From: Amycolatopsis sp. FBCC-B4732 | GTDB taxonomy: Bacteria; Actinomycetota; Actinomycetes; Mycobacteriales; Pseudonocardiaceae | Direction: 5' to 3' | Assembly: GCF_023008405.1 (NCBI RefSeq) | Contig: NZ_CP095376.1 | Location: 1,760,001 to 1,824,000 of the forward strand | DNA: 64,000 bases | In this document: positions 1 to 20,755 of the stretch, in pieces | How positions within the stretch are numbered: position 1 is the stretch's first letter | How the letters are laid out: every line of letters begins with the position of its first letter | The notes under the pieces: generated by a model | What the model saw: only the letters and a program-made list of their open reading frames with translations | Told to the model about the DNA's origin: nothing | The model's database searches: none | Position numbers and translations under genes: made by a program

Positions 1-1862
1 ACTATGCCGGCTGCACCCGCGCTGGACAGACCGTCGACGAAGTTAACGGGCGAATTTGGGGTGAGCTCGGCCGTGTGGCAGCCGTTAAGGATCACCAGCG
101 GCCGCGTGGTGGACCAGTGCTCGTCACGCGGCACCCAGTCGGCGACGGCCCACGTCGCGATGTCCTGTGGGTAGATGGCCTCGTTGCGCCCCACCTCGAT
201 CCAAGCGTCGTCGGGTGTCCCCCGGCCATGGCAATAGAAGTACGCCAGGCCGAGGGCGTGCTCGCCGAGCGCCTCGCAGACCTCGTCGGCTGAGCTGGCC
301 TCCCGGACACTGAACCCGGGCAACGAGGAAACCACCGCGGCAAGATGGGTGTCCGCCATCTCCCGGTCGAGCGCGAGGCTCTGTGCGATGGTGGCCGCCG
401 GTGCGGACGGGAGGAGGATCTGCAACGGCAGCGACCTACCGCGTGTCGAGGCCGGCTGTTCTATCGCGAAGCGAAACCCCCAGAAGCCGAAGGGGCACAG
501 CATGTTCTTCCGGGCGTGCTCGGCTTCACGCGGGCATCGCGTCGGAGAGCCGTCGATCAACGGTGCTCGATCGTCCCACTCCTCGACGAGGGGGCACAGG
601 TCGTAGTGGCCGGACCGCCTGCGCTCGAGCGGAAGGTCGTAGATCCCTGCCCACGGGAAGACGAACCGGCTGCTCTCGACGCGAGCGATCTGCATCCCGT
701 CGCCCTGTGCTTCGGCGAACGCGGGCAGTGCCTCAGGGGCATGCGGATACAACGCCGCCCAGTGTTTGGCTCCCACGCGCGCGAGCCGGGCGAGGTCCTT
801 CACCAGCCCCAGCCGTGACTTTTCGTTGGCAGGACCGAGGAGGCTGCGGCGCTGGGTGCCGTCCTGCTTAAGGTGAGCCCTCAGCAGCGCCGCACGGAAG
901 GCGTCCATCGCCGTCAGCAGCGTCCCCTCGCTGAAATCGACGGTGATAATGCCGTCGTCCGCGCCATTGAGGACCAGCGTGTGGCTGCCGCCGCGCTCGT
1001 TGACCAGGACGCCGGCCGCTCGCGCTCGAAGGGATTCGACGTCGCTGAGATTTTGGGTGAGCGTGAAGTCGACGTGCGCATGTTGACGTCCCGGGTCCCG
1101 CTCCAGTGCCACCACGTCGACTTCAACCAGCACGGACTGGACGACGTTGCGGCTGTGCCACAGCGCGACGCGGAGGCGGCCGAGGCCTGGTTCCAGGGGA
1201 GCCGTCACCGTGAGGAACGCGTAGTCATCACGGTCGCGAACATTGCAGGTGTGTGTGCCTCCGGGATGGCACGGACACGTGAAGCTGGCGCCCTGTCTGG
1301 GGAGGTAAAGGTGGGTCGGCTCCGTCGGCACGCGGAAGCCTTCGCTGGTGACGGTCAGCTCCAGCCAGTGTCCCTGCTGTGTTGGAGGCAGCCACTTCTC
1401 CGACACGGGCGGACTGTTGCGGTCCATGATCGACTCTGGTGAGAACTCGCCGACGTCGACCCGCAGCTGGTAGCCGCCTCCGGCGCGCAGGCCCTGGGTC
1501 GCCGGGACGCGGGTGAAGTCCTCTTGACGGACGAACGCGAGGTTCATGTAGCGAGGCGGCCGCCGAGGTTCGACCTTCGGCGGGCCGTCGCCCTTACGGC
1601 GCACGTCCTTCGGCGCCGGGGGCTCGGTGTCTGGGCTCTCGGGCTCCGCCGTGCCCGTGACCAAGCCGTAGACCTGCGGGTAGCCCGCCACGGCGACGCG
1701 GATGCGCGTTGCGGCGACCAGCGGCGCCAGGCGACCGAACTCGCCCTCTTCTATGAGCCGCGTGAGCTGCCGCTCCAGCTCTGGCCAGCCCGGCCCGGCG
1801 AGCGCGGGCAACCTGACCCAGTTGCGTCGCAAGTTGGCGACAAGGTCGTCGAAGTCTGCCAT
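1..1862 (-). CDS. CHAT-domain (caspase-like) protein with beta-rich middle, 3' end outside window
   Basis: About 620 codons are visible; the gene starts at the ATG at 1862 and runs off the left edge. The C-terminal part is a CHAT peptidase domain: a catalytic His in YCHG (about residue 545) and a catalytic Cys in LNGCH (about residue 595), preceded by the typical WGFRFAIEQP segment. The middle (about 120-270) looks beta-rich and carries a compact Cys/His motif, FTCPCHPGG followed by HTC, that could bind metal. Its start codon overlaps the stop of the small membrane protein upstream by one base (TGATG), so translation should be coupled. It is the last visible gene of a five-gene operon. CHAT proteins are caspase-like proteases in bacterial conflict systems; the substrate is unknown. 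A G-run near 485 invites a frameshift reading, but a careful count leaves the frame intact. Confidence 0.8.
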   Translation of the reverse strand, partial: MADFDDLVANLRRNWVRLPALAGPGWPELERQLTRLIEEGEFGRLAPLVAATRIRVAVAGYPQVYGLVTGTAEPESPDTEPPAPKDVRRKGDGPPKVEPRRPPRYMNLAFVRQEDFTRVPATQGLRAGGGYQLRVDVGEFSPESIMDRNSPPVSEKWLPPTQQGHWLELTVTSEGFRVPTEPTHLYLPRQGASFTCPCHPGGTHTCNVRDRDDYAFLTVTAPLEPGLGRLRVALWHSRNVVQSVLVEVDVVALERDPGRQHAHVDFTLTQNLSDVESLRARAAGVLVNERGGSHTLVLNGADDGIITVDFSEGTLLTAMDAFRAALLRAHLKQDGTQRRSLLGPANEKSRLGLVKDLARLARVGAKHWAALYPHAPEALPAFAEAQGDGMQIARVESSRFVFPWAGIYDLPLERRRSGHYDLCPLVEEWDDRAPLIDGSPTRCPREAEHARKNMLCPFGFWGFRFAIEQPASTRGRSLPLQILLPSAPAATIAQSLALDREMADTHLAAVVSSLPGFSVREASSADEVCEALGEHALGLAYFYCHGRGTPDDAWIEVGRNEAIYPQDIATWAVADWVPRDEHWSTTRPLVILNGCHTAELTPNSPVNFVDGLSSAGAAGI

Positions 1863-2182
1863 CAGTCGTCCATGAACTCGTCGCGCTTGCGGGGCTCACC
1901 GAGCCATTCGTCGACCTTCTTCCTGTCCTTCACCAGGAGCGCTGCAGTGAAGAGGTAGCCGAAGAATCCGACCGCGAGCCCGATGGAGTAGGCGGCGAAG
2001 ACGTCCGGGTCCTTGAACGGGATCGCAGTCACGGCACCGCCGCTCACTGCCCCGATCACCGCCGCGAGGTCCGAGAGCTGGGCGGGATCCTCGCGACGAC
2101 GCAGGGTCCGATAGGTGATCCAGCCGACCACGACTCCGAAGGCGACTGCGCCGATGATCGTGAGTGTTGTCGCTTCCATCAT
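1862..2182 (-). CDS. small membrane protein of the CHAT/TPR operon
   Basis: A 106-aa protein. The ATG at 2182 overlaps the stop of the TPR-CHAT gene by four bases (ATGA); a second ATG at 2179 is possible. Two to three hydrophobic segments are visible: one near residues 5-25, one near 40-55 and one near 63-85. It ends in a charged tail rich in Lys, Arg and Asp. An upstream extension to 2263 would only read through the end of the previous gene. Lying between two CHAT protease genes, it is an obvious candidate membrane target, anchor or pore component of the system, but that role is inferred from position. No known family was recognised. Confidence 0.75.
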   Translation of the reverse strand: MMEATTLTIIGAVAFGVVVGWITYRTLRRREDPAQLSDLAAVIGAVSGGAVTAIPFKDPDVFAAYSIGLAVGFFGYLFTAALLVKDRKKVDEWLGEPRKRDEFMDD

Positions 2183-5100
2183 GCCGCTCCAGTCACAGTA
2201 AAGGCCGCCCAGCTCAGCTCGTCGGCGAACGCCGGCGAGTCGTCGCCCCGGCGTGCGGCCCACTCGTCGCGCGCGGCCCGCAGGCGCTCGTCGTCCGGTG
2301 CCTCGCGTGCTAACGAGTCCGTGAGCCGAGCCACGTCGTCATAGCTGACCTCTTCACGCAGCCACGCCTGCGCCTGCGCGAGCGCGCGGGCAGGATGAAC
2401 CGCGCCCCAGTTCCAGCGCCGGAAGAACTCCGGCACGAGGAGCGACGTCGCAATGTCGCCGACCTCCCACAGAGAGCCGACGACCCAGCGTGTGCCCGTG
2501 GCGAGGAGAATGCCCGGCAGGCCGACGAGCTCGTCGAACGGGTCGTCCGGGGTGAACGAGGATGATTCACATGCCGCGAGGACCACGACATCGGGAGGAG
2601 TAGCGACCTCGCCCAGCGTCCGCGTCACCGTCAGCCGCCCATGGTCGTCACGTGAGGGCGCGCATCGCAGGAAGGAGCGCACCGGGTCGTCGACGTCGAA
2701 GGCGGCGTGCCCGGCAAAAAGCAGCACGTCGGCAGAACGCATCAGCTCGAGAACGGCGTCCGGCGTCGCAGCAGGGCCGGGGCATACGGTGGTAGGACCG
2801 TCATGGAGGGCCGCAACGGCACGCGCTTCGAAGCGGCTGAACGGCAGATCGCCCGTGGGGTCGACGACCTGGCCAAGCAGCCCTGTCGCAGGTCGCGACG
2901 TCCGATCGGAGATCAGCGAGAGGCTGGGAGCGAACGTGAGGCAGAACCGCTCGGCCGCCCGCCGTCCCTCCGGCAACGTGGCCGCGCCGAGCGGCAGGCC
3001 CGCCAACCGGGCAGACGGAAGCACCACCAGCCGCGACGTGTCGGCGGTCAGTCGCTCCAGCACGGCTGGCCACAGCTGCCGGCCCAGCGTCCGGCACAGC
3101 CGCGCCAGCGTTGTGGGGTCGCGGAGCTGCTCGGGGTCGGGCAGGTCAGCGCGTGTCATGCGCGGATCGAGTGCCGCCTCCGACCAGAGCGCTCCGGTCG
3201 CGTCCCGACCGGCGCATACCAGCTGGATGCCGTCCTCCACGACGTCGACCGCCACGACAGCCACCTCGGCCGGCAACGGGCGAAGCAGGTCCTCAAAGCG
3301 CGGGAACGGCGAGCGGGTCTTGTCGGGCTGGTGCTCGCCGAAAACCGCGGCGGTCGCATGCGCGAGCTCGCGCTCCGCCTCCGACGACTCGCGCGCGAGC
3401 TCAGGGTCGGGTAACAGCAGGTCGTTGCGTCGCCGCACGCGCAGCTCGGCCAGTGCGTCCGCAGCGCGCTCGTAGCGCAGCCAGTCCGCGTCGGACGTTC
3501 CGGCGGGACGGCTGCGTCGGCGCTCCATCACCGTGCGCAAGAACCGGGCCCGCCCCGATTCGACGATCTCCAGAGCGAACTTACCGTCGTCGGCACGGAC
3601 CGCCGCGTTAGTCGCCAGCCGGTGGACGCGTTCCTCCCTGCGCAGACGCTGGCGTGCGGACCCGGCTGCGCCCGAGAGGTCCGAGCCGTGGAGGAGCTCG
3701 AACGAGGTGCGGAGCGCTTCGCGCGCCGCCGGCCACTGCCCCTTGTCGGCCATCACAAGCGCTGAGAGGAGGTGCGCGTTCCAGAGCATGGCCGGCGCAC
3801 TGGTGTCGTCCAGCAACGAGTCGATTTCGACCAGCGTCTCCTCCGCGCCATAGGGGTCGCGCGCGCAGTAGCGCGCCTCGGCGAGGTTGAGTAGTGCGAC
3901 CAGTTCGTCGCGTGGCGAGTCGGCCGCTCGGAAGGACCGCACCGCGGCCGCGTGGTCCTGGGCGGCCTGGTCGAAGCGGCCTTCGAGGCGCTCGACGGTG
4001 CCAACCAGGTCGACTGCTGTCGCCTCCGCGTGGCGGTCGCTGACGCTCGTTGCCAAATCGCGTGCCGTCTGTGCGTAGTCGAGCGCGCTGTGGAGGTCGC
4101 CGCGCTGGATCGCCACGTTTGCGCGGATGCAGAGGGCTCGGGCGAGCCGGGTGTCGTCGCCGTTTGCCGTGGCCCGCTCGGCGATGCGCGCCAGCACTGC
4201 GTCGGCGCCCGTCGCGTCGCCCATCGCGCTGAGCGTCTGTGCGGTCTCCAGCCCGACCAGCCGCTCCGGGTCCTCGACGCCGGCGTTGTGCAGGCGGCTC
4301 GTCACCGACTCCAGGACCGTGAGCGCCTCGCTTACCGCGCCGTCCTCCAGCAACGCGAACGCGAGCGCCCGTGACCCGAAGCATGAGGTCGGATCCAGCT
4401 CCGCCTGATGCTCGAGCTCGAGTGCGTAAGCGGTCCGCAGCTCCACCAGGGCGGCGATGCGGTCTCCGCGTTCCGCGAGCGCATTGGCACGTGCGGCGCG
4501 CTGCAGCACGCGGCTGGCAGGCTCGACCGACTCGGCATCGACCTCGTCGAGCTGTGCGAGCGCCTCGTCTGGCCGACGGGCGCGTGCGAGCGCGTCGCCG
4601 AGCATGATCCTGACCTTGGGATCGTCATCGAGCTTCAGGGCAGTGCTCAACGCGTCGACCGCGGAAGCGAACTGCTGGCCCTCGTGCTGGAGCGCGCCGA
4701 GGACGGCGTACGCATGCGCTCGCACGCGCGGGTCTCCTGAGGCGTTCGCTGCGCGCACCGCGCGCTCGGCGTAGCCGCGAGCCCGCAGGGGCTGGGTGCT
4801 GACGGCTGTGACCATGCGCCCGAGGGTCTGGGCGGCGAGTGCCGGGTTGTCGTGTTCGTAGCGACGGGCGACGGCGTCCAGCTGGTCCAGGGCGGCGTCG
4901 ACGCGTCCGAGCGCGTGGAGGGCGATCGCGTAGTTGGCGCGTGCACCCCACTCCGTGGCGGAGGGCTGGCCCGACTTGATCTGCGAAAACGCGCGCTCGA
5001 ACAGCTTTACGGCCGCGTAGGGCTCGCCCTGGCGCGTCAATAGTGCGGCTCGTTGCAGAATCTCGTCCGGGTCGTCGCTCTCAGCCGCGAACTGCTCGTC

Positions 5101-7230
5101 TGACCCGGCGGCCGCGCGGGCAGCTCGCAGGTTGTAGCGCGTCAGCTCGAGCTGGTCCAGCTCGCCACGCCGCTCCTGGTCGCGTTCGAGCTGCTCGAAG
5201 ACCGGGATGGCCTCGTCCGCGCGACCAAGCTGGAGCAACGACGAGGCGAGGTTACCGAGGGCCATGCCCTCGATCTGCTCGAGCCCCAGGCGTCCGGCCG
5301 CATCGGCCGCGGCCTGCGCCGCCGCCATCGCCTCTTCCGCACGGCCTAGCTGTTGCAGGTTCACCGACGTCTCGTTGAGGAGGTCTGCTCGTATCTCGAT
5401 GTCAGCGTCCCCGAGCAGCTCAACACCGCGACGAGCATGCGCCAGCGCCGCCGCCGAGCCGGGAGCGCTTAGCATCAGGAACCGGCACAGGCACGCCGCC
5501 AGCGGCGCACTGTCCGTGGTCTTCACGACCAGCTGCACCAGCGCTGACTGGGTGCCGCGTTCGACGTTCTCATGACGCGCGACATAGGCAACGAGTGCGG
5601 TCGCGTCGTCGGTCGTGACCGCCAGAGACCGTGTGGCCGCCTCCGCGTCGGAAGCCGAGACGTGGCCTTGCGCCAGCAGCTCTGCCACCTGCAGCAGTCC
5701 GCCCGGGCCGCCGGCCGATGCGCCGTCCACAGTCGTGGCCACGCCGCTGTCCATGCGCTCGGCCAGGTAGTCGAAAAGGTCGAGCAGCGACGTGACTGCG
5801 CGCGGCTGGACGGGCGAGGCCCGCCAGCGGCTCAGCATCCCGTCCAGGCGCGGATCGGTCGCCGCGCACAGCGCGTCCACGTCCAGCGCCGCGACCGCCG
5901 GTGTGACCGGCAGGTCAGGCAACTCCATTCCTCCCGCTCTGCCCAGCCGCAGCGCCAGCGCCAACTCATCGGCCTCCAGCAGTCGCGTAGCCGCCTCCGC
6001 CACCTCCGGCAGCAGCAGCTCGCGGTCATCGGCGTCGAGATCACTTTCCTCCAGGAGGCGGGCGGCCTCGGTAAACGCGGCGACGGCGGCCGTCCAGTCG
6101 TGTTGAGCGTCGACGGCGACGCGGCCGCTCAGCAGGTAGGCCAGCAGCCGATGGTCGACGCGGGCCGTCGCGGAGATCTCGACGCACCGCTGTGCCAGTG
6201 CGACCGCTCGTCCCGTCTCACCCATCTCGAGGATTGGCACGACGAAGTTGAGGCTCAGCACCAGCTCGCGTCGCCGGTCAGCTCGTGCCCGGAGCCTGGG
6301 GATCGTCTCGTCGAATGCGGTCAGCGCGTCGCCCAGGTCGTGCTGCAACAGCGTCGCGGCGTAGTTCACGCGCGCCGAGAGCTCCGCTTCGACGTCGTGA
6401 CTGTCCAGCGCCGCGTCGATCTCGGCTCTGAACTTCTCCGGGGCGAGTGCGCTGGTTCGCAGTCCGCTACTGGGCTCGGCGTCCAACGTCTGCGTCATGG
6501 CAGTGACTATCTCGTCGTAGCCGAGACGACGGGCGATGTCCACCGCGGCTCGGAGGTCGTTCCGAGCGCGATGGGGATCGCCCGCGCGCTCCGCGAGGCT
6601 TCCGCGCAGCATAAGCGCGCGCAGCATGAGGTCGTCGCTTGCAGGGGGATCGGCGAAAAAGCGTCCGAGCACTGCGGACGCGTCTGTCGCGCGGTTTTGG
6701 GCGAATGCCGCATCGGCGAGCGCGAGGCGCACGGTGGCGAGGTTGTCGCGCAGCAGCGCTTCGATCTCCGGCGGGCCGGACGCGGTCTCCAGGCCGTGGG
6801 CGAACCACTCCTCGGCTTCCGCGAATCGCTGCTGCTCGGCGAAGTACTGCCCGGCCGTGGACGCCGCGGCGCCCACTTGGCGAGCGTCACCGGTCGCCTC
6901 AGCGGCCTCGAGCATCTGGGGGAGCAGGTTCTCGGCCTGCTCGTTCGCGCCGCGTGAGATCAGCAGCGCGACGAGGTTGGTGGTCCAGCGGCTCAGGTTG
7001 AGTGCGTCCCCGTAGCGCTGGCAGAGCGCGATCGCGCGTTCGTACGTCGCGATCGCCTTCTGGGGATTGCCGATCCGGTTGTAGGCGACGGCCATGTCGC
7101 CGAGGGCCCCGCACATTGCGGGGTCGTCCCCATTCATCGCCTCGGCGCGCGTGTACGCCTCGAGGGAGCGCACGGCATCTCCCGACTCGAGGAAGTTGCT
7201 GCCCTTGCGTAGGAGTTCGGTGAATTTCAT
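2179..7230 (-). CDS. giant TPR-CHAT protease
   Basis: A 1683-aa protein. Residues 1 to about 1270 are almost entirely helical TPR-type repeats, with many pairs of short amphipathic helices and recurring ALxxLGRxDEAL-like units. The C-terminal ~400 residues form a CHAT domain with catalytic His in FAGHA (about 1508) and catalytic Cys in LAACES (about 1554), so the protease is predicted active. The ATG at 7230 overlaps the preceding gene by four bases. TPR-CHAT proteins are known as triggered proteases, for example the one working with type III-E CRISPR effectors; the TPR part usually binds the partner that switches the protease on. No CRISPR genes are present here, so the trigger is probably the upstream operon products or an unknown ligand. 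Cytoplasmic; no signal peptide or membrane segment. Confidence 0.9.
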   Translation of the reverse strand: MKFTELLRKGSNFLESGDAVRSLEAYTRAEAMNGDDPAMCGALGDMAVAYNRIGNPQKAIATYERAIALCQRYGDALNLSRWTTNLVALLISRGANEQAENLLPQMLEAAEATGDARQVGAAASTAGQYFAEQQRFAEAEEWFAHGLETASGPPEIEALLRDNLATVRLALADAAFAQNRATDASAVLGRFFADPPASDDLMLRALMLRGSLAERAGDPHRARNDLRAAVDIARRLGYDEIVTAMTQTLDAEPSSGLRTSALAPEKFRAEIDAALDSHDVEAELSARVNYAATLLQHDLGDALTAFDETIPRLRARADRRRELVLSLNFVVPILEMGETGRAVALAQRCVEISATARVDHRLLAYLLSGRVAVDAQHDWTAAVAAFTEAARLLEESDLDADDRELLLPEVAEAATRLLEADELALALRLGRAGGMELPDLPVTPAVAALDVDALCAATDPRLDGMLSRWRASPVQPRAVTSLLDLFDYLAERMDSGVATTVDGASAGGPGGLLQVAELLAQGHVSASDAEAATRSLAVTTDDATALVAYVARHENVERGTQSALVQLVVKTTDSAPLAACLCRFLMLSAPGSAAALAHARRGVELLGDADIEIRADLLNETSVNLQQLGRAEEAMAAAQAAADAAGRLGLEQIEGMALGNLASSLLQLGRADEAIPVFEQLERDQERRGELDQLELTRYNLRAARAAAGSDEQFAAESDDPDEILQRAALLTRQGEPYAAVKLFERAFSQIKSGQPSATEWGARANYAIALHALGRVDAALDQLDAVARRYEHDNPALAAQTLGRMVTAVSTQPLRARGYAERAVRAANASGDPRVRAHAYAVLGALQHEGQQFASAVDALSTALKLDDDPKVRIMLGDALARARRPDEALAQLDEVDAESVEPASRVLQRAARANALAERGDRIAALVELRTAYALELEHQAELDPTSCFGSRALAFALLEDGAVSEALTVLESVTSRLHNAGVEDPERLVGLETAQTLSAMGDATGADAVLARIAERATANGDDTRLARALCIRANVAIQRGDLHSALDYAQTARDLATSVSDRHAEATAVDLVGTVERLEGRFDQAAQDHAAAVRSFRAADSPRDELVALLNLAEARYCARDPYGAEETLVEIDSLLDDTSAPAMLWNAHLLSALVMADKGQWPAAREALRTSFELLHGSDLSGAAGSARQRLRREERVHRLATNAAVRADDGKFALEIVESGRARFLRTVMERRRSRPAGTSDADWLRYERAADALAELRVRRRNDLLLPDPELARESSEAERELAHATAAVFGEHQPDKTRSPFPRFEDLLRPLPAEVAVVAVDVVEDGIQLVCAGRDATGALWSEAALDPRMTRADLPDPEQLRDPTTLARLCRTLGRQLWPAVLERLTADTSRLVVLPSARLAGLPLGAATLPEGRRAAERFCLTFAPSLSLISDRTSRPATGLLGQVVDPTGDLPFSRFEARAVAALHDGPTTVCPGPAATPDAVLELMRSADVLLFAGHAAFDVDDPVRSFLRCAPSRDDHGRLTVTRTLGEVATPPDVVVLAACESSSFTPDDPFDELVGLPGILLATGTRWVVGSLWEVGDIATSLLVPEFFRRWNWGAVHPARALAQAQAWLREEVSYDDVARLTDSLAREAPDDERLRAARDEWAARRGDDSPAFADELSWAAFTVTGAA

Positions 7231-7862
7231 CCCAGCAGCACCTCCCGGAGCTCGCCCAGCCGGTCAGCCTGTCCCAGCAGCTGCAGAGCGGTCGCCATTG
7301 TCTTCGCGACGTCGAAGTCGCCGTCGCGAACCGAGAGCGTGGCGACGTTCACCATGACGTCGACCAGCCGGGTGACGTAGACGGGATCCTCTACCGCCAT
7401 CGCGTTCAGTTGGTTGGCGCACGCGAGGAACCGATCCCTCGCTTCGGTGATGCGCTCGTCCCTGAGAGCCAGATCACCGTCGAGCAGCTCGAAGTACAGT
7501 GCGGCGCGCGGGTCCTGGAGGTCCTGCGCGAGCGCCTTGCCGGCGTCAATCTCCTCGCGCGTCGCGTGCGCGACGTCGCGGCTGGCGATCGCGTCGTGCA
7601 ACCGGAAGATCTCGAGCGCGAGCACCGAATCCGGAGCGCCGCCGAGGTGCGCCGCGACCGCGTCGTACGCACTGCTGGGTGCCATGCCTGGTCCCTGATA
7701 GGCCTCCAGCAGTGCGTACACCGCGGCACCCTCTTCGTAGGAGACCCCTCCGTACGGCGGCGACCCGCCGACCGACCACACCGCATCCATCCACGCCTCC
7801 TGGCCGTTGGCGAGGATCGCCCGAGTGAGCCAGTAAGGCCAGGACAGCGACTGCTCATCCAC
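7227..7862 (-). CDS. helical 211-aa protein upstream of TPR-CHAT
   Basis: A 211-aa, mostly helical acidic protein rich in Ala, Asp and Leu, without membrane segments or recognisable catalytic motifs. The second half (from about residue 85) has a TPR-like flavour: repeated pairs of helices around DPRAALYFELLDGD and NVATLSVRDGDFD. Its stop overlaps the TPR-CHAT start by four bases and its own start overlaps the Cys-rich gene by eight, so it is a core part of the coupled operon. Position suggests a regulator or adaptor that docks on the TPR protein, possibly one of the small proteins that accompany CHAT/TPR conflict systems. I do not recognise the family; function is unassigned. Confidence 0.75.
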   Translation of the reverse strand: MDEQSLSWPYWLTRAILANGQEAWMDAVWSVGGSPPYGGVSYEEGAAVYALLEAYQGPGMAPSSAYDAVAAHLGGAPDSVLALEIFRLHDAIASRDVAHATREEIDAGKALAQDLQDPRAALYFELLDGDLALRDERITEARDRFLACANQLNAMAVEDPVYVTRLVDVMVNVATLSVRDGDFDVAKTMATALQLLGQADRLGELREVLLG

Positions 7863-8385
7863 GGTCAGGATCTCCGTGCTTGCCGGAGAAATTGCGGTCG
7901 ACCGCTGCCATCACGAACCGGTGCGCCAACGACACTTGGTCCTGCCGGAGATGTCTGTTCATCTCCAACTCGTTGCCGGACTGTTCGCAGCGATTTGCCC
8001 GTTGCCGCTGGCGGACGGTGGGCCGGGCGAGGTGGATGCGGATATTCGGCCGTCTCCACAGCTCACCGGCGGGCCGAGGGCTGCCAGCAACATCCCGTTG
8101 GCGAGAGAGGTGCACCGTGCTGCGTCGGCTGGCAGAGCATGCCGTCTCACACGAGAACAAACGTCTGAACATGGCGATGCGCTCCTCGCCTGCGAGCGCC
8201 CGCCGCGCGAAGGTCCTGCAGGGGCAGTCTGTGCACCGGAGGTGCTGCTCCAACCGCTCGCCGTGCTTTGGGCAAGCATGCACATTGCAGCCGTAGCACG
8301 TACCGAACTCGTCGGTGGACTGCGCCGCCGGACTGGTCATCGCGCTGACGGCCCCCACAGTGCACAAAAAGCACGTATCCACCAT
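7855..8385 (-). CDS. Cys-rich putative metal-binding protein, first gene of CHAT/TPR operon
   Basis: Predicted 176 aa from the ATG at 8385 (a GTG at 8394 is also in frame). The N-terminal 75 residues carry many Cys/His pairs: CFLC, CYGC, a HACPKHG segment, and CTDCPC, spaced like a zinc-ribbon or treble-clef fold. The C-terminal half is Arg/His-rich and less convincing. The frame ends inside the first codons of the 211-aa gene (8-base overlap), which argues that it is genuinely translated as the operon leader. A zinc-finger-like sensor or adaptor role is inferred. A frameshift within 8040-8200 cannot be excluded, because the Cys-rich part is clearly more protein-like than the rest. Confidence 0.55.
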   Translation of the reverse strand: MVDTCFLCTVGAVSAMTSPAAQSTDEFGTCYGCNVHACPKHGERLEQHLRCTDCPCRTFARRALAGEERIAMFRRLFSCETACSASRRSTVHLSRQRDVAGSPRPAGELWRRPNIRIHLARPTVRQRQRANRCEQSGNELEMNRHLRQDQVSLAHRFVMAAVDRNFSGKHGDPDRG

Positions 8386-8567
8386 GGCAACCACCCGTCA
8401 TTCCGTGCTGAGTAGTCGCCGCAACCCCGGCAGGTGTTTCAGTGGAGACACAACGGGTGGGTATCGGAGCGGCAGCTCGCGCGCTACTGATGGTCGCGGT
8501 CGTGCGGGACCTGCGGTTCGGGGCGGTCGGATGGGTGCCCAGCGGCGGATCGACGACACCAACTCGT

Positions 8568-9326: not shown

Positions 9327-9530
9327 TTAGTCATTCTTGGTGGAGTCGAGCGGGTCATCATCGACCTTGTCTGCTTCCCGGGAGACCTCGAACCCGAGGA
9401 ACCGCAGTCGGACCCACATGGGGTGCGCGGAGGTCTTCACCATCCGCGTGATGACCAGCACCGTTCCCATCGTGACGACCAGCACGGCCACCACGACGTA
9501 CGGCGACGCTCCTGCGAGGAACCCCCACAT
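9327..9530 (-). CDS. small single-span membrane protein divergent from HTH/NB-ARC gene
   Basis: A 67-aa frame from the ATG at 9530 (GTG codons at 9533 and 9536 are alternatives). Residues 8-28 form one clear hydrophobic helix, followed by a basic stretch and an acidic C-terminal tail (DKVDDDPLDS). It is transcribed away from the NB-ARC/TPR gene that starts 166 bases away, so the two could share a divergent promoter. The arrangement mirrors the other NLR-like gene at 14105, which also has a divergent membrane-protein gene. No family recognised and the ribosome-binding site is weak. Confidence 0.5.
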   Translation of the reverse strand: MWGFLAGASPYVVVAVLVVTMGTVLVITRMVKTSAHPMWVRLRFLGFEVSREADKVDDDPLDSTKND

Positions 9531-9696
9531 CACGACCCCATTCCCGGCCTCAGGCCGTGGCCCGTGTCCGACCCGTGTGATCCAGACCCTGAGACGGTAC
9601 GATCGCTGCTCGTCATCCGGCGTCGGCGTGAGGGCATTCACGCAGGTCAGGCGGAGGCAAGTCGTTACATCAAGTGACATCCAGGACGGAGGCCCG

Positions 9697-12201
9697 GTGG
9701 CCAAGCGTCTCCCCGGCCAGCCGAGGCGATGGGCTCGCTTCATCGGCGGCACCGCTGAGACCCCTGAGACCCGTGCCTTGGCGCAGTTCCTGCGGGAACT
9801 CCTGGATCGCTGCCCCGAACCGCTTGGGGAAGTCGGCCGGCGTCTGAACGTGTCCGCTCAGACCCTGTCGAACCGGGTCAACGCGCAGAAGCGACCGGAC
9901 TGGGACTTCGTGCGGAACGTGGTGCATCTGGCATACGGCGCTGGCGACATTGCAGGCCGGTTGACGAAGCTGCACGAGGCCGAACAGTTGTGGCGTCGAG
10001 CCAGCCCGGCCAACACAACGTCTCCTGCGTACCCCGGGGTCGCCCAGCCGGTGCCGGTCGAGGACGACCTACGCAGCGGCGGTACTGACGGTTCGGGCGT
10101 GCCGGCGATGGAGTCGCTCCCAGCCGTTGCGGGCGTGGGTCGTGTCCCGGCCGAGCCGGACGTGTTCGTCGGCAGAGTCCAGGAGCTGGAGCAGCTGGAG
10201 TCGGTGGTGGCCGGATCGGGTGGTCGTGCGGTGGTGGTTGCGGTGCACGGTTTGGGCGGGGTCGGCAAGAGCACCCTGGCCGCTCGGTTCGCGGGGCTGC
10301 ACACCGGCCGGTTCTCACCAGTGTGGTGGGTAGCAGCGGACTCGCCGGCAGCGGTAGAGAGGGGGTTGGGAGAGCTGGCCGCCGCGCTGGCGCCGGAGAC
10401 GGCGACACTGCCCACCGAACAGCGCGTGGAGCTGTGCCTGCGATGGCTGGCGACCCACGAGGACTGGTTGCTGGTGTTGGACAACGTATCCGGCCCGCAG
10501 GATGTGGCGGGGTTGCTGAGCCGGGTGCGGACAGGCACGGTCGTGATCACCAGCCGCCAACGCTCAGGATGGCGGGCTACGAAGACAGTGCCGTTGGATA
10601 TGCTCACCGAGGACGAAGCGGTAGCACTGCTGGCCCGGATCGTGCAGTCGGAGTGGCCGGACGCGAACCTGGCCGGCGCGAACCGGTTGTGCGCTGAGCT
10701 GGGGTGGCTGCCACTGGCGGTCGAGCAGGCAGGCGCCTACTTAGCTCAGACACGTACCAGCCCTGCCGCTTATCTGGACCTGCTGGCGCGGTTTCCGGCG
10801 CGGATGTTCACCGCGACGGCGGAGGGCGGTGACGCGCAAAGGACGATGGCCAGAGTTTGGCACGTCACCCTCGACCGCCTCGCCGACACTCCGGCTGCGG
10901 GGCAGGTGCTGCGGCAGCTGGCCTGGTTCGCAGCGGACGGCATTCCCCGGAACTTGTTGGCTGGTGCTTTGGGGGAACCGGACCTGTCTGAGGCGCTGGG
11001 CCGTCTGGCGGCTTACAGCATGGTCACTCTGACCGGAGACACTGTGGCAGTGCATCGTCTCGTTCAGGCGGTCACCCGCACACCCGACCCCGCTGACCCG
11101 CACCGTCAGCCCGCCGACATCGCGGCCGCCCGAAACAGCGCCGCAACCTTTCTCGCGGCCGCCCTCTCCGATCTTGACCCGGACTCTCCCGCTGACTGGC
11201 CTGTCTATCGGATGGTCCTGCATCATGCGCAGGCTCTTCTGGAACACACCAAGCCCGACGTCCACACTACGCAAACCGGCCGGTTGCTCAACGAGCTGGG
11301 CCTCTACCTCAAAGGGCAAGGCGAGGTCGGCACCTCCATTGACTACCTCACCCGCGCCCGTGACAGCTACCAGCGCCTCAACGGTCCCGACCATCCCGAC
11401 ACGCTGAACTCGCGGAACAACCTGGCGGTCGCCTACGAATCGGCGGGTAATTTGGGGCGGGCGATTCCACTGTTTGAGGCCACGCTCGCCGACTGCGAGC
11501 GGGTGCTGGGACCTGACGACCCGTACACGCTCACTTCGCGGAACAACTTGGCGAGCGCCTACGAGTCGACGGGCGATTTGCGGCAGGCGATTCCACTGTA
11601 TGAGGTTACTCTTGCCGATTTTGAGCGGGTACTGGGACCGGGCCACCCTGACACGCTGAGCTTGCGGAACAACCTGGCTTACGTCTACCGGGCGGCGGGT
11701 TATCCGAGCCGGGCGATTCCGCTATACGAGGCCACCCTCGCCGATCGGGAGCGGGTGCTGGGAGTTGACCATCCCGATACGCTGAGCTCGCGGAACAATC
11801 TGGCCTACGCCTACCAGTCGGCGGGTGATCTGGAGCGAGCGATTCCGCTATACGAGGCTACCCTCACCGACCGGGAGCGGGTGCAGGGACCTGACTACCC
11901 CGACACGCTGACCTCGCGGAACAATCTGGCCTACGCCTATGATTCGACGGGCGATTTGGGGCGCGCGATTCCGCTGTATGAGGTCACTCTCGCCGATCGG
12001 GAGCGGGTGCTGGGAGTTGACCATCCCGACACGCTGCTCTCGCGGAACAACTTGGCGAGCGCGTACGAGGCGATGGGTGATTTGGAGCGGGCGATTCCGC
12101 TGTACGAGGCTACCCTCGCCCGCTGGGAGGGGGTGCTGGGAACCGACCACCCCACGACCAAGACCATCCGGTCGCTCATCGACGGAATGCGATCGACATG
12201 A
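9697..12201 (+). CDS. HTH / NB-ARC / TPR STAND protein (NLR-like)
   Basis: An 834-aa protein from GTG 9697, preceded by GGAGG four bases upstream; the frame is open further upstream but without better signals. Residues about 20-100 are a small helix-turn-helix-like domain (VGRRLNVSAQTLSNRVNAQ). An NB-ARC NTPase follows, with VGR box VFVGR, P-loop HGLGGVGKST (about 184-193) and Walker B WLLVLDN (about 258). The C-terminus has seven kinesin-light-chain-type TPRs, six of them nearly identical 42-residue units beginning NNLA. STAND proteins are ligand-activated switches: TPRs sense, the NTPase oligomerises, and the N-terminal domain signals. Here the N-terminal effector looks nucleic-acid or protein binding, not enzymatic. 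It lies next to two CHAT loci, suggesting a conflict or regulatory role; the ligand is unknown. Confidence 0.85.
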   Translation: MAKRLPGQPRRWARFIGGTAETPETRALAQFLRELLDRCPEPLGEVGRRLNVSAQTLSNRVNAQKRPDWDFVRNVVHLAYGAGDIAGRLTKLHEAEQLWRRASPANTTSPAYPGVAQPVPVEDDLRSGGTDGSGVPAMESLPAVAGVGRVPAEPDVFVGRVQELEQLESVVAGSGGRAVVVAVHGLGGVGKSTLAARFAGLHTGRFSPVWWVAADSPAAVERGLGELAAALAPETATLPTEQRVELCLRWLATHEDWLLVLDNVSGPQDVAGLLSRVRTGTVVITSRQRSGWRATKTVPLDMLTEDEAVALLARIVQSEWPDANLAGANRLCAELGWLPLAVEQAGAYLAQTRTSPAAYLDLLARFPARMFTATAEGGDAQRTMARVWHVTLDRLADTPAAGQVLRQLAWFAADGIPRNLLAGALGEPDLSEALGRLAAYSMVTLTGDTVAVHRLVQAVTRTPDPADPHRQPADIAAARNSAATFLAAALSDLDPDSPADWPVYRMVLHHAQALLEHTKPDVHTTQTGRLLNELGLYLKGQGEVGTSIDYLTRARDSYQRLNGPDHPDTLNSRNNLAVAYESAGNLGRAIPLFEATLADCERVLGPDDPYTLTSRNNLASAYESTGDLRQAIPLYEVTLADFERVLGPGHPDTLSLRNNLAYVYRAAGYPSRAIPLYEATLADRERVLGVDHPDTLSSRNNLAYAYQSAGDLERAIPLYEATLTDRERVQGPDYPDTLTSRNNLAYAYDSTGDLGRAIPLYEVTLADRERVLGVDHPDTLLSRNNLASAYEAMGDLERAIPLYEATLARWEGVLGTDHPTTKTIRSLIDGMRST
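11404..12165 (+). repeat. six tandem 126-bp TPR-coding repeats
   Basis: The DNA phrase cggaacaa(c/t)(c/t)tggc recurs every 126 bases (near 11413, 11539, 11665, 11791, 11917 and 12043), each copy encoding one 42-residue TPR. Copies are similar enough at the DNA level that unequal recombination could change repeat number, as is common in sensory repeat proteins. Confidence 0.85.
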
Positions 12202-14104: not shown

Positions 14105-17100
14105 ATGGGTGATGCCGTCCTGCTCCAACTGGATGTCAGAGCCAACGTCGTCCAGCTGATCGGCCCGGGTCTCGACGTGAGCGAACGCCACAACGGCGTA
14201 ACCCAGGAACTGCTGGACTCAATCTCCGACGTCCAGCGCGCCCGTCGCCGGTCCGTTAACCGGGTTGCCGACCCGGGCGCGGTTCCGTCCCTGCGTGCGG
14301 TGGGCCGCCTGCTCGGCGACGCCCTGCTCCCGGGCCGCGTCGCCGCCGGTCTGATCGCCCAGCTTGGTGAGTCGCGCCGAGTCAACGTCGCCCTGACGTC
14401 GGAGACCTATGCCGGGCTGCCCTGGGAGGCCGTGACCCTCCCTGGAACCGAGGTGCCCTTGGTGCTCCAGCCTGGGGTGCAGGTGTTTCGCACGGTCAAG
14501 TCGCCCCAGCCGCGCCCCACCCTCCGAGGCGGCCCATTGCGCATCGCCTTCGCCGTGGCCGCCCCCACCGAGAACGGCGGTGCTCTGCTGAACTACGAGC
14601 GTGAGCTTCGAGACATCGAGGAAGCGGTCCGGCCGGCGCGCGCGGCTGGCCTGGAGCTGACCTTGGTGCGCTACGCCACCCTTGGTTCCCTGCGTTCCTG
14701 TGTAGAGAACGTGCAGCCACATGTCCTGCATGTGTCGACGCACGGCGGCGTTGGGTCGCTGACCCTGGAGGACGACGAAGGGCGGCCCCGGCCCGTCGGG
14801 GCGGACGAATTCGTCACCGAAGTTCTCGGCGCCGGTCCCGTACCCGACCTCATCTGCCTCGCTGCCTGCTTCACCTCGGCCGAGGCCGCGCCCGGCCTGC
14901 CATCGTTTGCCGCCCGGCTCGTGCACAGCGGCGTGAAGGCAGTCGTCGGAACCCAGACCTCCGTCACCGACAGGTATTCAACGCTCTTCTTCACGCGGCT
15001 TTACAACATACTCGCCACCGGCTCGACCGACCTCGCGGCCGCGACCGCCGATGCCCGGCGCGCCGTGCAGGAGCAGCTCAGCGGCCCGGGCGAACCCCGG
15101 CAGCAACAGATCGCCAGGCTGGACGAGTGGGCCATCGTCACGCTCAGCACCACCGACGAGACGCCGACCCTCATCTCCGGCACCCCGGTCGAGGGCGCCC
15201 CGGCCGTTCGAGTGGAACCGGACGGGTCCGAGTTCATCGGCCGCCGCGGAGAGCAACGGCTGATCGCCAGACTCCTGTTGGAGGAGAGCGTCAGCCTCCA
15301 CGGCCTGGGCGGGGCCGGCAAGACGGCTCTCGCGTGGCAGGTGATTGCGAGCCTCGAAGAGAGGATGGACCTGACCGCCATGGTCAGCGGGACGGCGACC
15401 GCGGCGGAGACATTCGCCGTGGCAGCACGATGCGCATCAGCCGACGTCCGGGATGACAACGCCGGATTGCCGTGGGCCGAACGCCTGCGCCGCCTCGCAT
15501 CCCGCCTTCCGAGCGGGCGGAGCCTGGTCCTGGTCGTCGACGGGAGTTGTGAGTCAGAAGGTCTGCGTGAACTCATGACCGTCTGGGCCGCGACGCCCGG
15601 GTTGCGACTGTTACATACCTCCCGCGTTCCCGAGATCCCGGGCACCACCAAGGTTTCGCTGCCGCAGCTCAGCCTTCCCGAGACCGTGAAGCTGGCGTGG
15701 TCCCTCCCCGCCGTGGGCCGCTGGACGGACAACTCCATCGAAGCCGCGTTCGATCTTCTCGGAGGCCATCCGGCAGCGTGGTTCTCGCTGGACCGCTCGC
15801 TCTCACTTTCGTCGTCCGTCCCCGACTCGCTCGTCACCCGATTCGCGGAGATCACCTGGTCCGCGTCCGGCGCCGCCGACCGCGTGCGGGAGCTCGCAGA
15901 CGGGAACGCCTACCTCACCCTGCTGGCTGCGTCAATCTTTAATTCACCATTTCCGGCCGAAGGCTTGGACAAGGCCCTGCTAGGCGCGAACGTGGGCACC
16001 GGCGTTCGCCCGGAGACTGAGAGACTCATCCACCTCGGCCTCCTGGCCGTGCGGCTAGACGGGCTCCTGGACTGCCCTCGCTGGTTGCGGGTGATTCTGC
16101 AGGCGAACGCATCCGACGACTTCCAGAGAGAAACACTCAACCGATTCGAGTTCATGGCCGGCGAGTTCTTTATGAATCGGGTGCTATCGACGGCCGACCA
16201 GCAGGATCCATACAACATTAGAAGCGACTCGGACATTCACGACTTCACCGAGGCCAACCAGCATTTCCTGGCTGCTGGCGCCCTGCCGCAGGCGGCAGCA
16301 GCAGCCGTCCTGGCAGCGCAGGCGTTGCGACGCGAGGGTGCGTGGGTCGCCCGAGACCAGATCCTCCGGCAGAACTTGAGCGTCCCCGGCTGGGACGAGC
16401 GATCGAGGATACATCTCTTGCAAGCTCTCGGCGAGTTGGCCCTCGACTCGGGAGACTATGACGAGGCCCTAAGTGCCTTCGACGAAGCCTACGACCTCAG
16501 CCGAGGACTGAGTGCGGAATCCGAGTACGACGCCCACCAGCGAAGCCGGATTCAGGGACACATCGCGCTGGTCTACAAAGCTCGCGGCCAGCTCGACGAC
16601 GCCGAGCGTGCCTTCACGAACGTCCTGGAGAGCGCCCGGGCCGACGGTGACGAGATCGTCGAGGCCTCTGCCTTATACAACCTGGCCGAGCTGTTCGAGC
16701 GTCAGGGTGCGCTGGATAAGGCTGAACCGCTGTACTTGGATGCACTGACGCTGAAGGAGAGCCAAGGAGACCGCCTCGGAGCGGCGAACTGCATCCACCA
16801 GCTGGGAATGCTTAACCAGTTCCGTGGTCAGTTTCAGGAGGCGTTCGAGTACTACCAGGCCGCCGCCCGGATCCGGGCCGAGGTCGGTGACGCACATGAA
16901 TCGACGATCTCAGTCGCCCAGCTCGGCATTCTGCTGACCCTGGTCGGCGAATGGAGCGGAGCTAGGCGCCTACTGTCGCAGGCACTGGGAACCTTCGAGG
17001 CCGTGGGCGACGTATCTATGATGGCGGTCTGCTACGAGAAGCTGGGCATCGTCGCGACGGCCTATCGTGAGTTCGACCTGGCCGAACGGTACCTGGCGCG

Positions 17101-19441: not shown

Positions 19442-19638
19442 AGCGACGCCTCGGGGCAAGTGGGATTCAGGCACTGGACGCGTCCCTTCGTGTTCGTAGC
19501 CGCGTTGCCTCGGCGGACCAAAGACTACGGAGGGTCGCAGCCAGCCGCGCCGCCACACGTGGGCTCAGCTCGCACCCACTGTGAGCACTCACTGTTCGAC
19601 CGGTTGCTGGCGCGAGGCCTGCATCGGCCAGGCGCTAG

Positions 19639-20751
19639 CTGTTGCGGGTCATTACGTTGGTGACGTGGGCGAAGGCCTAAGACGAGGGACGGGTCTTTCG
19701 ACGGCAGGATGAGAAGTGCGACCAACACATCCGCCGAGGAGAAAGACCCGTCCGTGCACCACCGTAATGCCCCACTGTCCCTCGAGGGCCGCCGCCGGCT
19801 CGTCGCGCGTTGCCAGACCCGCCCGATCGCCCACGTCGCCGCCGAAATGGGCATCTCCCGGCAATGCGCCTCCAAATGGGTCAACCGCTGGCGCCGCTAT
19901 GGCGAGACCGGCCTGCTCGACCAGCCCAGCGTCCCGCACCACCAGCCCACCGCCACCCCCGCCGAGGTCGTGGCCCGGATCGAGCAGCTGCGCAGGCAAC
20001 GCAAGTACTCCGCCCGCCGCATCGCCACCGAACTCACCACCGAAGGCATCACCCTCTCCGTCCGCACCGTCGGCCGGCACCTGCTGCACCTCGGGCTCAA
20101 CCGGCGCCGCTTTATCGACCCCACCGGCGCCACCAACCGGGAACCCCGCAAGATCATCGCCCGCTGGCCCGGGCACATGGTCCACCTGGACGTGAAGAAG
20201 ACCGGCCGGATCCCCGACGGCGGCGGCTGGCGCATCCACGGCAAAGGCAGCGACCAGGACAAACGCGCCCGCCGCGGCAAGACCCGAGGCCAGCGGGCCC
20301 GCTACACCTACCTGCACTCCGCCGTCGACGGCTACTCACGCCTGGCCTACACCGAAGCCCTGCCCGACGAAACCGCCCGGACCGCGATCGGGTTCGTCCA
20401 CCGCGCCCGAGCCTTCTTCGCCCGCCACGGCATCACCCACATCCACCGCCTGGTCACCGACAACGGCGCCTGCTACCGCGCGAACGACTTCGCCACCGTC
20501 CTGCGCGGAGCCCGGCATCAGCGGATCACGCCCTACACCCCACGCCACAACGGGAAAGTCGAGCGCTACAACCGGATCCTGGCCGAAGAGTTCCTCTACG
20601 CCCATGTCTGGCTCAGTGAAGAACACCGCACCGCAGCCCTGGCCGTCTGGAACATCCACTACAACTACCATCGACCACACACTGCCGCTGGGAACCAGCC
20701 ACCGGTCACCCGGCTCCACACCGGCGTCACCAACGTCATGGCCTCATACAA
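19639..20751 (+). mobile_element. IS481-family insertion sequence
   Basis: Imperfect terminal inverted repeats of about 26 bp start with TGT at 19640 and, on the other strand, at 20750; they share the core CAT-n-ACGTTGGTGACG. Direct repeats CTAG flank the element at 19635-19638 and 20752-20755, matching the known preference of IS481 for NCTAGN targets with duplication. The single transposase gene inside is complete, so the copy is probably recent and potentially active. It inserted between the decayed accessory region and the dormancy-type cluster. Confidence 0.85.
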
Positions 20752-20755
20752 CTAG
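19754..20755 (+). CDS. IS481-family transposase
   Basis: A 333-aa DDE transposase; GTG 19754 starts the conserved VHHRNAPLSLEGRRRL N-terminus, while an in-frame ATG at 19709 would add 15 residues. Domains: an N-terminal helix-turn-helix (VAAEMGISRQCASKWVNRW, about 30-50) and an integrase core with catalytic residues in HLDVKKTG, TDNGACYRA and HNGKVERYNR. It cuts and pastes the element. The stop codon TAG is completed by the CTAG target duplication, so the reading frame ends only because of the insertion site. Confidence 0.93.
   Translation: MHHRNAPLSLEGRRRLVARCQTRPIAHVAAEMGISRQCASKWVNRWRRYGETGLLDQPSVPHHQPTATPAEVVARIEQLRRQRKYSARRIATELTTEGITLSVRTVGRHLLHLGLNRRRFIDPTGATNREPRKIIARWPGHMVHLDVKKTGRIPDGGGWRIHGKGSDQDKRARRGKTRGQRARYTYLHSAVDGYSRLAYTEALPDETARTAIGFVHRARAFFARHGITHIHRLVTDNGACYRANDFATVLRGARHQRITPYTPRHNGKVERYNRILAEEFLYAHVWLSEEHRTAALAVWNIHYNYHRPHTAAGNQPPVTRLHTGVTNVMASYN

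What the first reader, a model, noticed from the sequence alone, without database searches (positions are those of the whole stretch)
1..8394. Five-gene coupled CHAT/TPR conflict operon with two protease genes and a membrane protein
The order is Cys-rich protein, 211-aa helical protein, TPR-CHAT protease, membrane protein, CHAT protease, with overlaps of 8, 4, 4 and 1 bases. Both CHAT domains keep their His/Cys dyads (FAGHA/LAACES and YCHG/LNGCH). Two caspase-like proteases in one operon with a small membrane protein suggest a cascade: sensor to TPR-CHAT, to the second CHAT or the membrane protein. CHAT/TPR conflict systems are known from comparative genomics; this exact five-part set, with a metal-binding-like leader protein, I have not seen described.
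Basis: partly seen in the sequence, partly recalled or inferred. Interest (0 to 1): 0.8.

Follow-up and report, generated by a model that had tools for sequence, protein, structure and literature searches.

The report
CHAT protease and membrane-protein death module
A mobile gene cluster pairs two caspase-like proteases with a tiny membrane protein; among close relatives the membrane protein is missing where the second protease has lost its active site, which points to a sensor-triggered, protease-driven cell-death switch.

Summary
Four of the five genes are real: g2, g3 (TPR-CHAT), g4 (three-helix membrane protein) and g5 (second CHAT, ending 190 bp outside the window). The Cys-rich 'leader' g1 is not part of the unit: homology to the one close relative locus stops inside it, and the rest is frameshifted and unconstrained. 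g2 and g3 look like one sensor; a 19-bp duplication fuses them in that relative.

The conserved core is g4-g5. In 249 Streptomycetaceae genomes the same seven carry g5 (E 1e-20) and g4, side by side. All 19 g4-linked CHATs with a complete region keep the His/Cys dyad; g4 and dyad are absent together in three lineages of the CHAT tree. Remoter CHATs can be intact without g4. N-termini of g5-type CHATs vary (LRR, HEAT, and an EF-Tu 98% identical to the genome's own), like interchangeable sensors. Another CHAT accompanies the pair in 7 of 20 core loci.

Best reading: a sensor/initiator CHAT activates an executioner CHAT, which licenses a small membrane effector (abortive-infection-like). Linkage and joint absence are shown; cascade order, pore formation and phage trigger are inferred. 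New variant of the known 'caspase-like protease plus membrane protein' conflict systems.

The parts
7227..7862 (-). g2, 211-aa helical protein, GTG start; read as the N-terminal part of the TPR sensor
   Evidence: ORF; fused in frame to g3 in L002 through a 19-bp duplication; coding constraint 4/4/17; upstream GGAG and start position shared with L002
2179..7230 (-). g3, 1683-aa TPR-CHAT protease (sensor/initiator, inferred), H1508/C1554
   Evidence: Pfam TPR_12 and CHAT; dyad invariant in 4 of 4 aligned relatives
1862..2182 (-). g4, 106-aa glycine-rich three-helix membrane protein (membrane effector, inferred)
   Evidence: 12 invariant positions in 68 aligned relatives; AlphaFold2 model helices 6-29, 33-53, 59-83, pLDDT 68.7; linked to g5-type CHATs
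1..1862 (-). g5, second CHAT protease (executioner, inferred); 683 aa, continues 190 bp beyond the window to genome base 1759811; H545/C595
7863..8174 (-). leader shared with L002 upstream of g2; not coding for g1
   Evidence: DNA conserved but frame broken and substitutions 8/13/9 over codon positions
7855..8394 (-). g1 ORF (Cys-rich), rejected as a part of the unit
19635..20755 (+). right copy of a 1121-bp IS481-family element; the left copy lies outside the window at genome 1753484-1754604, same orientation, one mismatch

Best explanation
The unit is a two-protease, one-membrane-protein death module. g2+g3 form a split TPR-CHAT sensor/initiator; on recognising an infection-linked ligand (inferred) its CHAT becomes active and activates g5 (inferred). 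g5, a CHAT protease of Csx29/separase fold, then acts on or through g4, a small glycine-rich three-helix membrane protein that is the terminal effector, most likely a pore or channel that stops the cell (inferred). In relatives the same g4-g5 pair is driven instead by sensor domains fused to g5 (LRR, HEAT, an EF-Tu bait). Shown: g4-g5 linkage, joint absence of g4 and the g5 active site within this clade, the g2-g3 fusion in a relative, near-identity between two bacterial families. Inferred: order of the cascade, the substrate, membrane permeabilisation, phage as trigger.
For: In 249 Streptomycetaceae genomes exactly the same seven have g5 (E 1e-20) and g4 (E 1e-3), all adjacent (hypergeometric 9e-14). 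In the window's family 8 of 9 genomes with g4 have it next to a g5 match. Dyad intact in 19 of 19 g4-linked CHATs with a complete region; broken in 8 of 9 without g4; both labels need three changes on the tree, forced by well-supported branches, at the same places. Six further family genomes checked late also lack both, but they look like one of these lineages. Sensor-like N-termini: LRR, HEAT and EF-Tu, EF-Tu 98% identical to the separate EF-Tu gene of the same genome. A second, differently built CHAT in 7 of 20 core loci with dyads present. g5 fold. CHAT proteases controlling adjacent gasdermin pore genes are on record (PMC12881547, passages).
Against: No experiment; no sign of a pore beyond sequence, charge pattern and a middling model. 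L077 keeps g4 beside a CHAT fragment lacking the Cys stretch; L076 has a g4 piece without CHAT. L034 has an intact g5-type CHAT and no g4 in view (its contig starts inside g5). Remoter CHATs caught by the g5 profile (G018, G057, G353, G383, G401, G457, G728; ORF E 5e-30 to 6e-13) have dyad-like residues and no g4 in the flanks held, so an active CHAT does not need g4 outside this clade. 13 of 20 core loci show no second CHAT in the stretch examined, so a cascade is not general. Many rows are near relatives, so independent events are about three.
Confidence: 0.5

Rival explanations
1. g4 is the sensor, not the effector: it detects membrane damage (for instance by a phage holin or DNA entry) and activates the CHAT protease, which then releases fused or other effectors, as proposed for the EACC1-caspase systems.
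For: Kaur et al. 2020 (PMC7159879, section 33) argue this for a Gly-rich TM protein next to a caspase with variable fused domains, EF-Tu among them. The joint absence of g4 and the dyad fits equally well.
Against: The variable domains here are mostly recognition modules (LRR, HEAT, TPR), which are poor effectors; a near-exact EF-Tu copy looks like bait. If g4 senses, no obvious effector is left in the window's unit.
Confidence: 0.25
2. g4 is a membrane tether or inhibitor (immunity-like partner) of g5: it keeps the protease silent at the membrane, and is dropped when the protease dies.
For: Explains loss of g4 after loss of catalysis and the tight pairing.
Against: A tether would not need 12 invariant positions across all three helices. 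L048, L070 and L071 encode g4 on the opposite strand from g5, unusual for an inhibitor that must be made together with its target (inference).
Confidence: 0.13
3. The unit serves development or stress control rather than defence, as the CHAT protein HetF does in cyanobacterial division (PMC8406250, listing only).
For: Lentzea-type members without g4 lie in similar chromosomal surroundings in several genomes (L003, L041-L043), so some family members look domesticated.
Against: The g4-g5 pair is patchy (g4 in 9 of 200 and 7 of 249 genomes), occurs on plasmids, is 94-95% identical in DNA between two families, and lies between IS copies with NB-ARC and CHAT-NB-ARC genes.
Confidence: 0.08

Closest known systems
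[quoted passage not shown] 2020, PMC7159879, section 33)
   Same: Actinobacterial two-gene core of a small Gly-rich membrane protein and a caspase-superfamily protease carrying many alternative fused domains, EF-Tu among them
   Different: EACC1 has a single TM helix with alpha+beta extensions and is the 5' gene, and the caspase is N-terminal; here g4 has three predicted helices, lies on either side of g5, and the CHAT is C-terminal with variable parts in front; a second CHAT gene joins in some loci
Gasdermin plus CHAT protease systems (fungal, bacterial; PMC12881547, passages)
   Same: A CHAT or other protease with repeat sensors encoded beside a membrane-active protein
   Different: g4 is a 106-aa helical membrane protein, not a gasdermin (size and beta-rich fold of gasdermins recalled)
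Craspase, type III-E CRISPR with the TPR-CHAT protein Csx29 (PMC9729208, PMC10028731, listings; PMC10952713, passage)
   Different: g3 scores 36.9 against a cut-off of 300 for the Csx29 model; no Cas7-11 among the neighbouring proteins scanned
SAVED-CHAT (PDB 8tl0) and its protease cascade in type III-B CRISPR (cascade recalled; only the PDB title seen)
   Same: A CHAT protease that starts a chain of proteolysis
   Different: No SAVED domain found here; two CHATs and a membrane protein instead

Membership tests
CHAT (PF12770), caspase/separase clan proteases | CHAT domain with His/Cys dyad in g3 | tested here: met
   Pfam E 6.2e-38; H1508/C1554
CHAT (PF12770), caspase/separase clan proteases | CHAT domain with His/Cys dyad in g5 | tested here: met
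EACC1-caspase system | 5' gene with a single-TM EACC1 domain | tested here: not met
   g4 models as three helices and Pfam lists no EACC1 for it
EACC1-caspase system | Caspase domain at the N-terminus of the second protein | tested here: not met
   CHAT is C-terminal in g5 and its relatives
Type III-E CRISPR Craspase | g3 is Csx29 | tested here: not met
   36.9 bits against a cut-off of 300
Type III-E CRISPR Craspase | CRISPR array and Cas7-11 nearby | not tested
   No array search was run; the neighbours scanned with Pfam show no Cas7-11
Gasdermin-protease system | Adjacent gasdermin gene | tested here: not met
   The only small partner, g4, is helical with no gasdermin match
Known anti-phage systems in PADLOC-DB 2.0.0 | Match to a listed system protein | tested here: not met
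   Only a generic TPR model for g3 and a chance-level match for g4; none for full g5
Anti-phage defence in general | Protection against phage or plasmid | not testable with these tools
   Needs an experiment

The most novel reading that the evidence does not exclude
An undescribed bacterial death pathway with an apoptosis-like logic: an initiator CHAT protease and an executioner CHAT protease in series, converging on a minimal three-helix membrane pore, with interchangeable sensor modules that include an integrated decoy, a near-perfect copy of the host's EF-Tu fused to the executioner protease.
Probability: 0.33. Interest if true: 0.88.

Novelty: new variant of a known kind. Interest (0 to 1): 0.66.

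Why it matters
It would add a sizeable family (759 g4 relatives at E 1e-3 among the 8000 candidates scored) of protease-coupled membrane proteins, give a genetic handle (g4 and the active site missing together) on which partner the protease needs, and offer a bacterial test case for two open questions: whether caspase-like proteases act in series in bacterial immunity, and whether host proteins such as EF-Tu serve as integrated decoys, as in plant NLRs (recalled).

Tried and rejected
Rejected: g1 as a gene of the unit. Rejected: the five-gene set as the conserved unit; the data point to g4-g5 as core and g2+g3 as one accessory sensor. Rejected: g3 as Csx29. Led nowhere: a scan of viral contigs gave no g5 relative; g2 has no relative in 295 other class genomes at E 1e-3; g3 has none in 119 other family genomes at E 1e-30 and two database relatives beyond itself at E 1e-40 (83% and 32%; 8000 candidates scored); Pfam and PDB sequences give only weak matches for g4. 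A YeaQ/YmgE relation of g4 was considered because some sources name relatives so; PF04226 (number recalled) is not among the 25 of 57 Pfam families shown, so this stays undecided. g4 was not sent to a fold search because its model is of middling confidence. The plain Foldseek search of g5 was not obtained; the VIA second look was. The Calothrix plasmid locus L089 was fetched but not scanned for g4.

Thresholds and dropped rows: the '20 core loci' are the window and 19 loci whose g5 profile match had E 1e-65 or better, a cut chosen after seeing the list. From the dyad count I left out L051, L077 and L078 (CHAT fragments) and L076 (no CHAT); all are described in the full report. The tree's ten rows in no group are L034 and nine database proteins. 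The second-CHAT profile was built partly from L034, L047, L048 and g3, so those match by construction; Pfam confirms them.
Full report

G1 IS NOT PART OF THE UNIT. The scan of the species-genome collection for close g5 relatives returned two loci, one of them close at the DNA level: L002, a Streptosporangiaceae bacterium that holds g2-g5 at 94-95% DNA identity. Homology ends at window position about 8174, inside the g1 ORF; in L002 a nucleotidyltransferase-like gene lies there instead. Over 7855-8176 the two differ by 30 substitutions spread 8/13/9 over g1 codon positions, with a 1-base indel, against 4/4/17 in g2, 58/51/135 in g3 and 26/24/59 in g5; g4 is uninformative (8/8/6 and a 30-base indel). 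The g2 start has a shared GGAG upstream and is GTG here, ATG in L002. The Cys-rich part found no credible relative: 9 of 245 other class genomes gave weak hits (E 0.002-0.0095) that look like chance on inspection, and 72,556 plasmid records gave none at E 0.1.

G2 AND G3 LOOK LIKE ONE SENSOR. In L002 a 19-bp tandem duplication at the junction removes the g2 stop and gives one 1900-aa ORF. In the window, and judging by length in database protein P0030 (1684 aa, 83%), g3 is separate. Whether the duplication is natural or an assembly error is not known.

THE CONSERVED CORE IS G4 PLUS G5. I fetched 24 stretches from these genomes (L076 was chosen for its g4 hit alone, L077 and L078 for g4 beside weak g5 matches) and five of the seven plasmid loci, and with L002 and L003 scanned 31 loci in six frames with g4, g5 and CHAT profiles. 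g5 matches in 30 of 31, g4 in 21 of 31, both in 20 of 31. Reverse test: the g4 profile finds 9 of 200 family genomes, 8 of them with g4 beside a g5 match, two of these (L077, L078) only CHAT fragments; the ninth (L076) is a g4 piece with no CHAT. In the 249 Streptomycetaceae genomes the g4 profile finds seven, exactly the seven with g5 at E 1e-20, all adjacent (hypergeometric 9e-14). At a laxer cut, G018 and G057, which groups with that family or which share its label, hold remoter CHAT matches (E 1e-10 and 5.5e-14) without g4. In database proteins four further g5 relatives share contig length and source with a g4 relative (P0003/P0049, P0004/P0065, P0005/P0057, P0006/P0059), an indirect sign of linkage. 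Order varies over the 20 loci with both: g4 3' of g5 on the same strand in 11, 5' on the same strand in six (L002, L036, L039, L044, L046, L047), opposite strand in three (L048, L070, L071); in L047 two genes lie between.

G4 AND THE ACTIVE SITE ARE MISSING TOGETHER. Aligning the CHAT regions: 19 of 19 g4-linked proteins with a complete region, the window included, keep His545 and Cys595. Of nine without g4, L037, L038 and L045 have Cys to Ser, L040 has His to Arg, and L003, L041, L042 and L043 lack the Cys stretch; L034 is intact, but its contig begins inside g5. (L038 is cut at its other side too.) A maximum-likelihood tree needs three changes for each label, forced by well-supported branches, and g4 and dyad change at the same places: the Lentzea-type clade next to L035, the L037/L038/L045 clade, and L040 next to L036. 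Loss is the simplest direction, but the tree is only midpoint-rooted. Fisher's test gives 2.9e-6 but ignores kinship; independent events are about three.

RESULTS AGAINST A STRICT RULE. L077 has g4 beside a CHAT fragment lacking the Cys stretch; L078 is a fragment with both residues and g4; L051 is a fragment between IS elements, both residues present, without g4. Of 16 family genomes with a g5 match and no g4 I first inspected three (G434, G446, G476). A late check of ten more held loci shows six (G302, G345, G377, G399, G450, G464) with the dyad stretch missing, like the Lentzea type; the other four (G353, G383, G401, G457), and G018, G057 and G728 from the phylum search, are remoter CHATs (ORF E 5e-30 to 6e-13) with His and Cys at the aligned places and no g4 in the short flanks. 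G322, G408 and G488 were not looked at. So active CHATs without g4 exist outside the g5 clade, as expected of a large superfamily; the coupling is claimed for the clade only. This did not change my odds.

SENSORS. The common part of the family starts near residue 90 of g5. In front of it lie LRRs (L049), HEAT repeats (L075) or a three-domain EF-Tu (L073; L072 is 95.5% identical), a zinc ribbon and a cyclase-like stretch with scores under Pfam's cut-offs (L033), or sequence without Pfam match. The EF-Tu part of L073 keeps its GTPase motifs (motif meaning recalled) and is 98% identical over 392 residues to a separate EF-Tu gene of the same genome; in the second genome that gene is 96% identical to the same query. 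EF-Tu fused to a caspase is on record for the EACC1 system (PMC7159879, section 33), so the fusion idea is not new; a pairing with g4 did not turn up in my paper searches.

SECOND CHAT. Seven of the 20 core loci carry another CHAT: window, L002, L034, L047, L048, L070, L071 (Pfam for all but L071). Architectures differ (C-terminal CHAT in the window type and L047, N-terminal in L034 and the L048/L070/L071 group), and His/Cys are present. An added CHAT thus seems to have been recruited more than once, which supports an upstream protease but does not prove order; 13 of 20 show none in the stretch examined.

G4. In 68 of the 120 listed relatives (759 found) 12 positions are invariant, six of them Gly, with Asp38 invariant before the second helix. 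The charge pattern (neutral N-terminus, basic first loop, acidic second loop, slightly basic tail) suggests N-out/C-in, and the model has helices 6-29, 33-53 and 59-83 (pLDDT 68.7, pTM 0.53). Pore formation is inference.

SURROUNDINGS. Two 1121-bp IS481-family copies with one mismatch, the only full-length copies in the genome, lie in the same orientation at genome 1753484 and 1779635. Between them are g2-g5, an NB-ARC-TPR protein (9337-12201) and a CHAT-NB-ARC-TPR protein (14105-18196). No target duplication was evident in the 20 bases looked at on each side. With the 94-95% identity to a genome of another named family this marks the unit as mobile.

MECHANISM. Most likely (0.5): ligand binding by g2-g3, activation of g5, g5 acting on or with g4 at the membrane, growth arrest or death. 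Shown: the pair, the joint absence in the clade, the fusion in a relative, the mobility. Inferred: everything from sensing on. Rivals: g4 as membrane sensor (0.25), as inhibitor or tether (0.13), non-defence role (0.08).

LITERATURE. Ten searches of the open library listed no paper that I could recognise as describing a CHAT protease paired with this membrane protein, or an EF-Tu-CHAT pair; most subscription papers are missing there, so this is not proof. Seen: section 33 and passages of PMC7159879; passages of PMC8195603, PMC10907252, PMC12669027, PMC10952713 and PMC12881547; others by listing only. The SAVED-CHAT cascade is recalled.

Noticed in passing
L073:7714-10923 and L072:9007-12204 (genomes G981, G1073): A complete EF-Tu fused to a g5-type CHAT with g4 next door; the EF-Tu part is 98% (G981) and 96% (G1073) identical to a separate EF-Tu gene, which looks like a decoy.
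   Followed up: partly
window 14105-18196: A third CHAT protein in the window: N-terminal CHAT, NB-ARC, TPRs.
   Followed up: no
window 9337-12201: NB-ARC-TPR protein with a weak N-terminal HTH match, divergent from the operon.
   Followed up: no
window 19635-20755 and L004:11485-12605: Two nearly identical IS481-family copies in the same orientation bracket about 27 kb holding the operon.
   Followed up: partly
L004:1955-5275: NACHT protein with an NNH7 helical domain just outside the left IS copy.
   Followed up: no
g5 residues C196/C198/H204/C206 and C423/C443/H449/C456: Two conserved Cys/His clusters in g5, possible zinc sites; the first is absent in part of the family.
   Followed up: partly
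L003, L041, L042, L043 and G302, G345, G377, G399, G450, G464: A Lentzea-type lineage of g5-like proteins without catalytic residues and without g4, in similar chromosomal surroundings where looked at.
   Followed up: partly
L048, L070, L071: Streptomyces-type loci share a very large protein, an N-terminal-CHAT protein, g5 and an opposite-strand g4.
   Followed up: partly
L002:52-3264: An upstream neighbour in L002 matches the Pfam domain TcA_TcB_BD; only noted.
   Followed up: no
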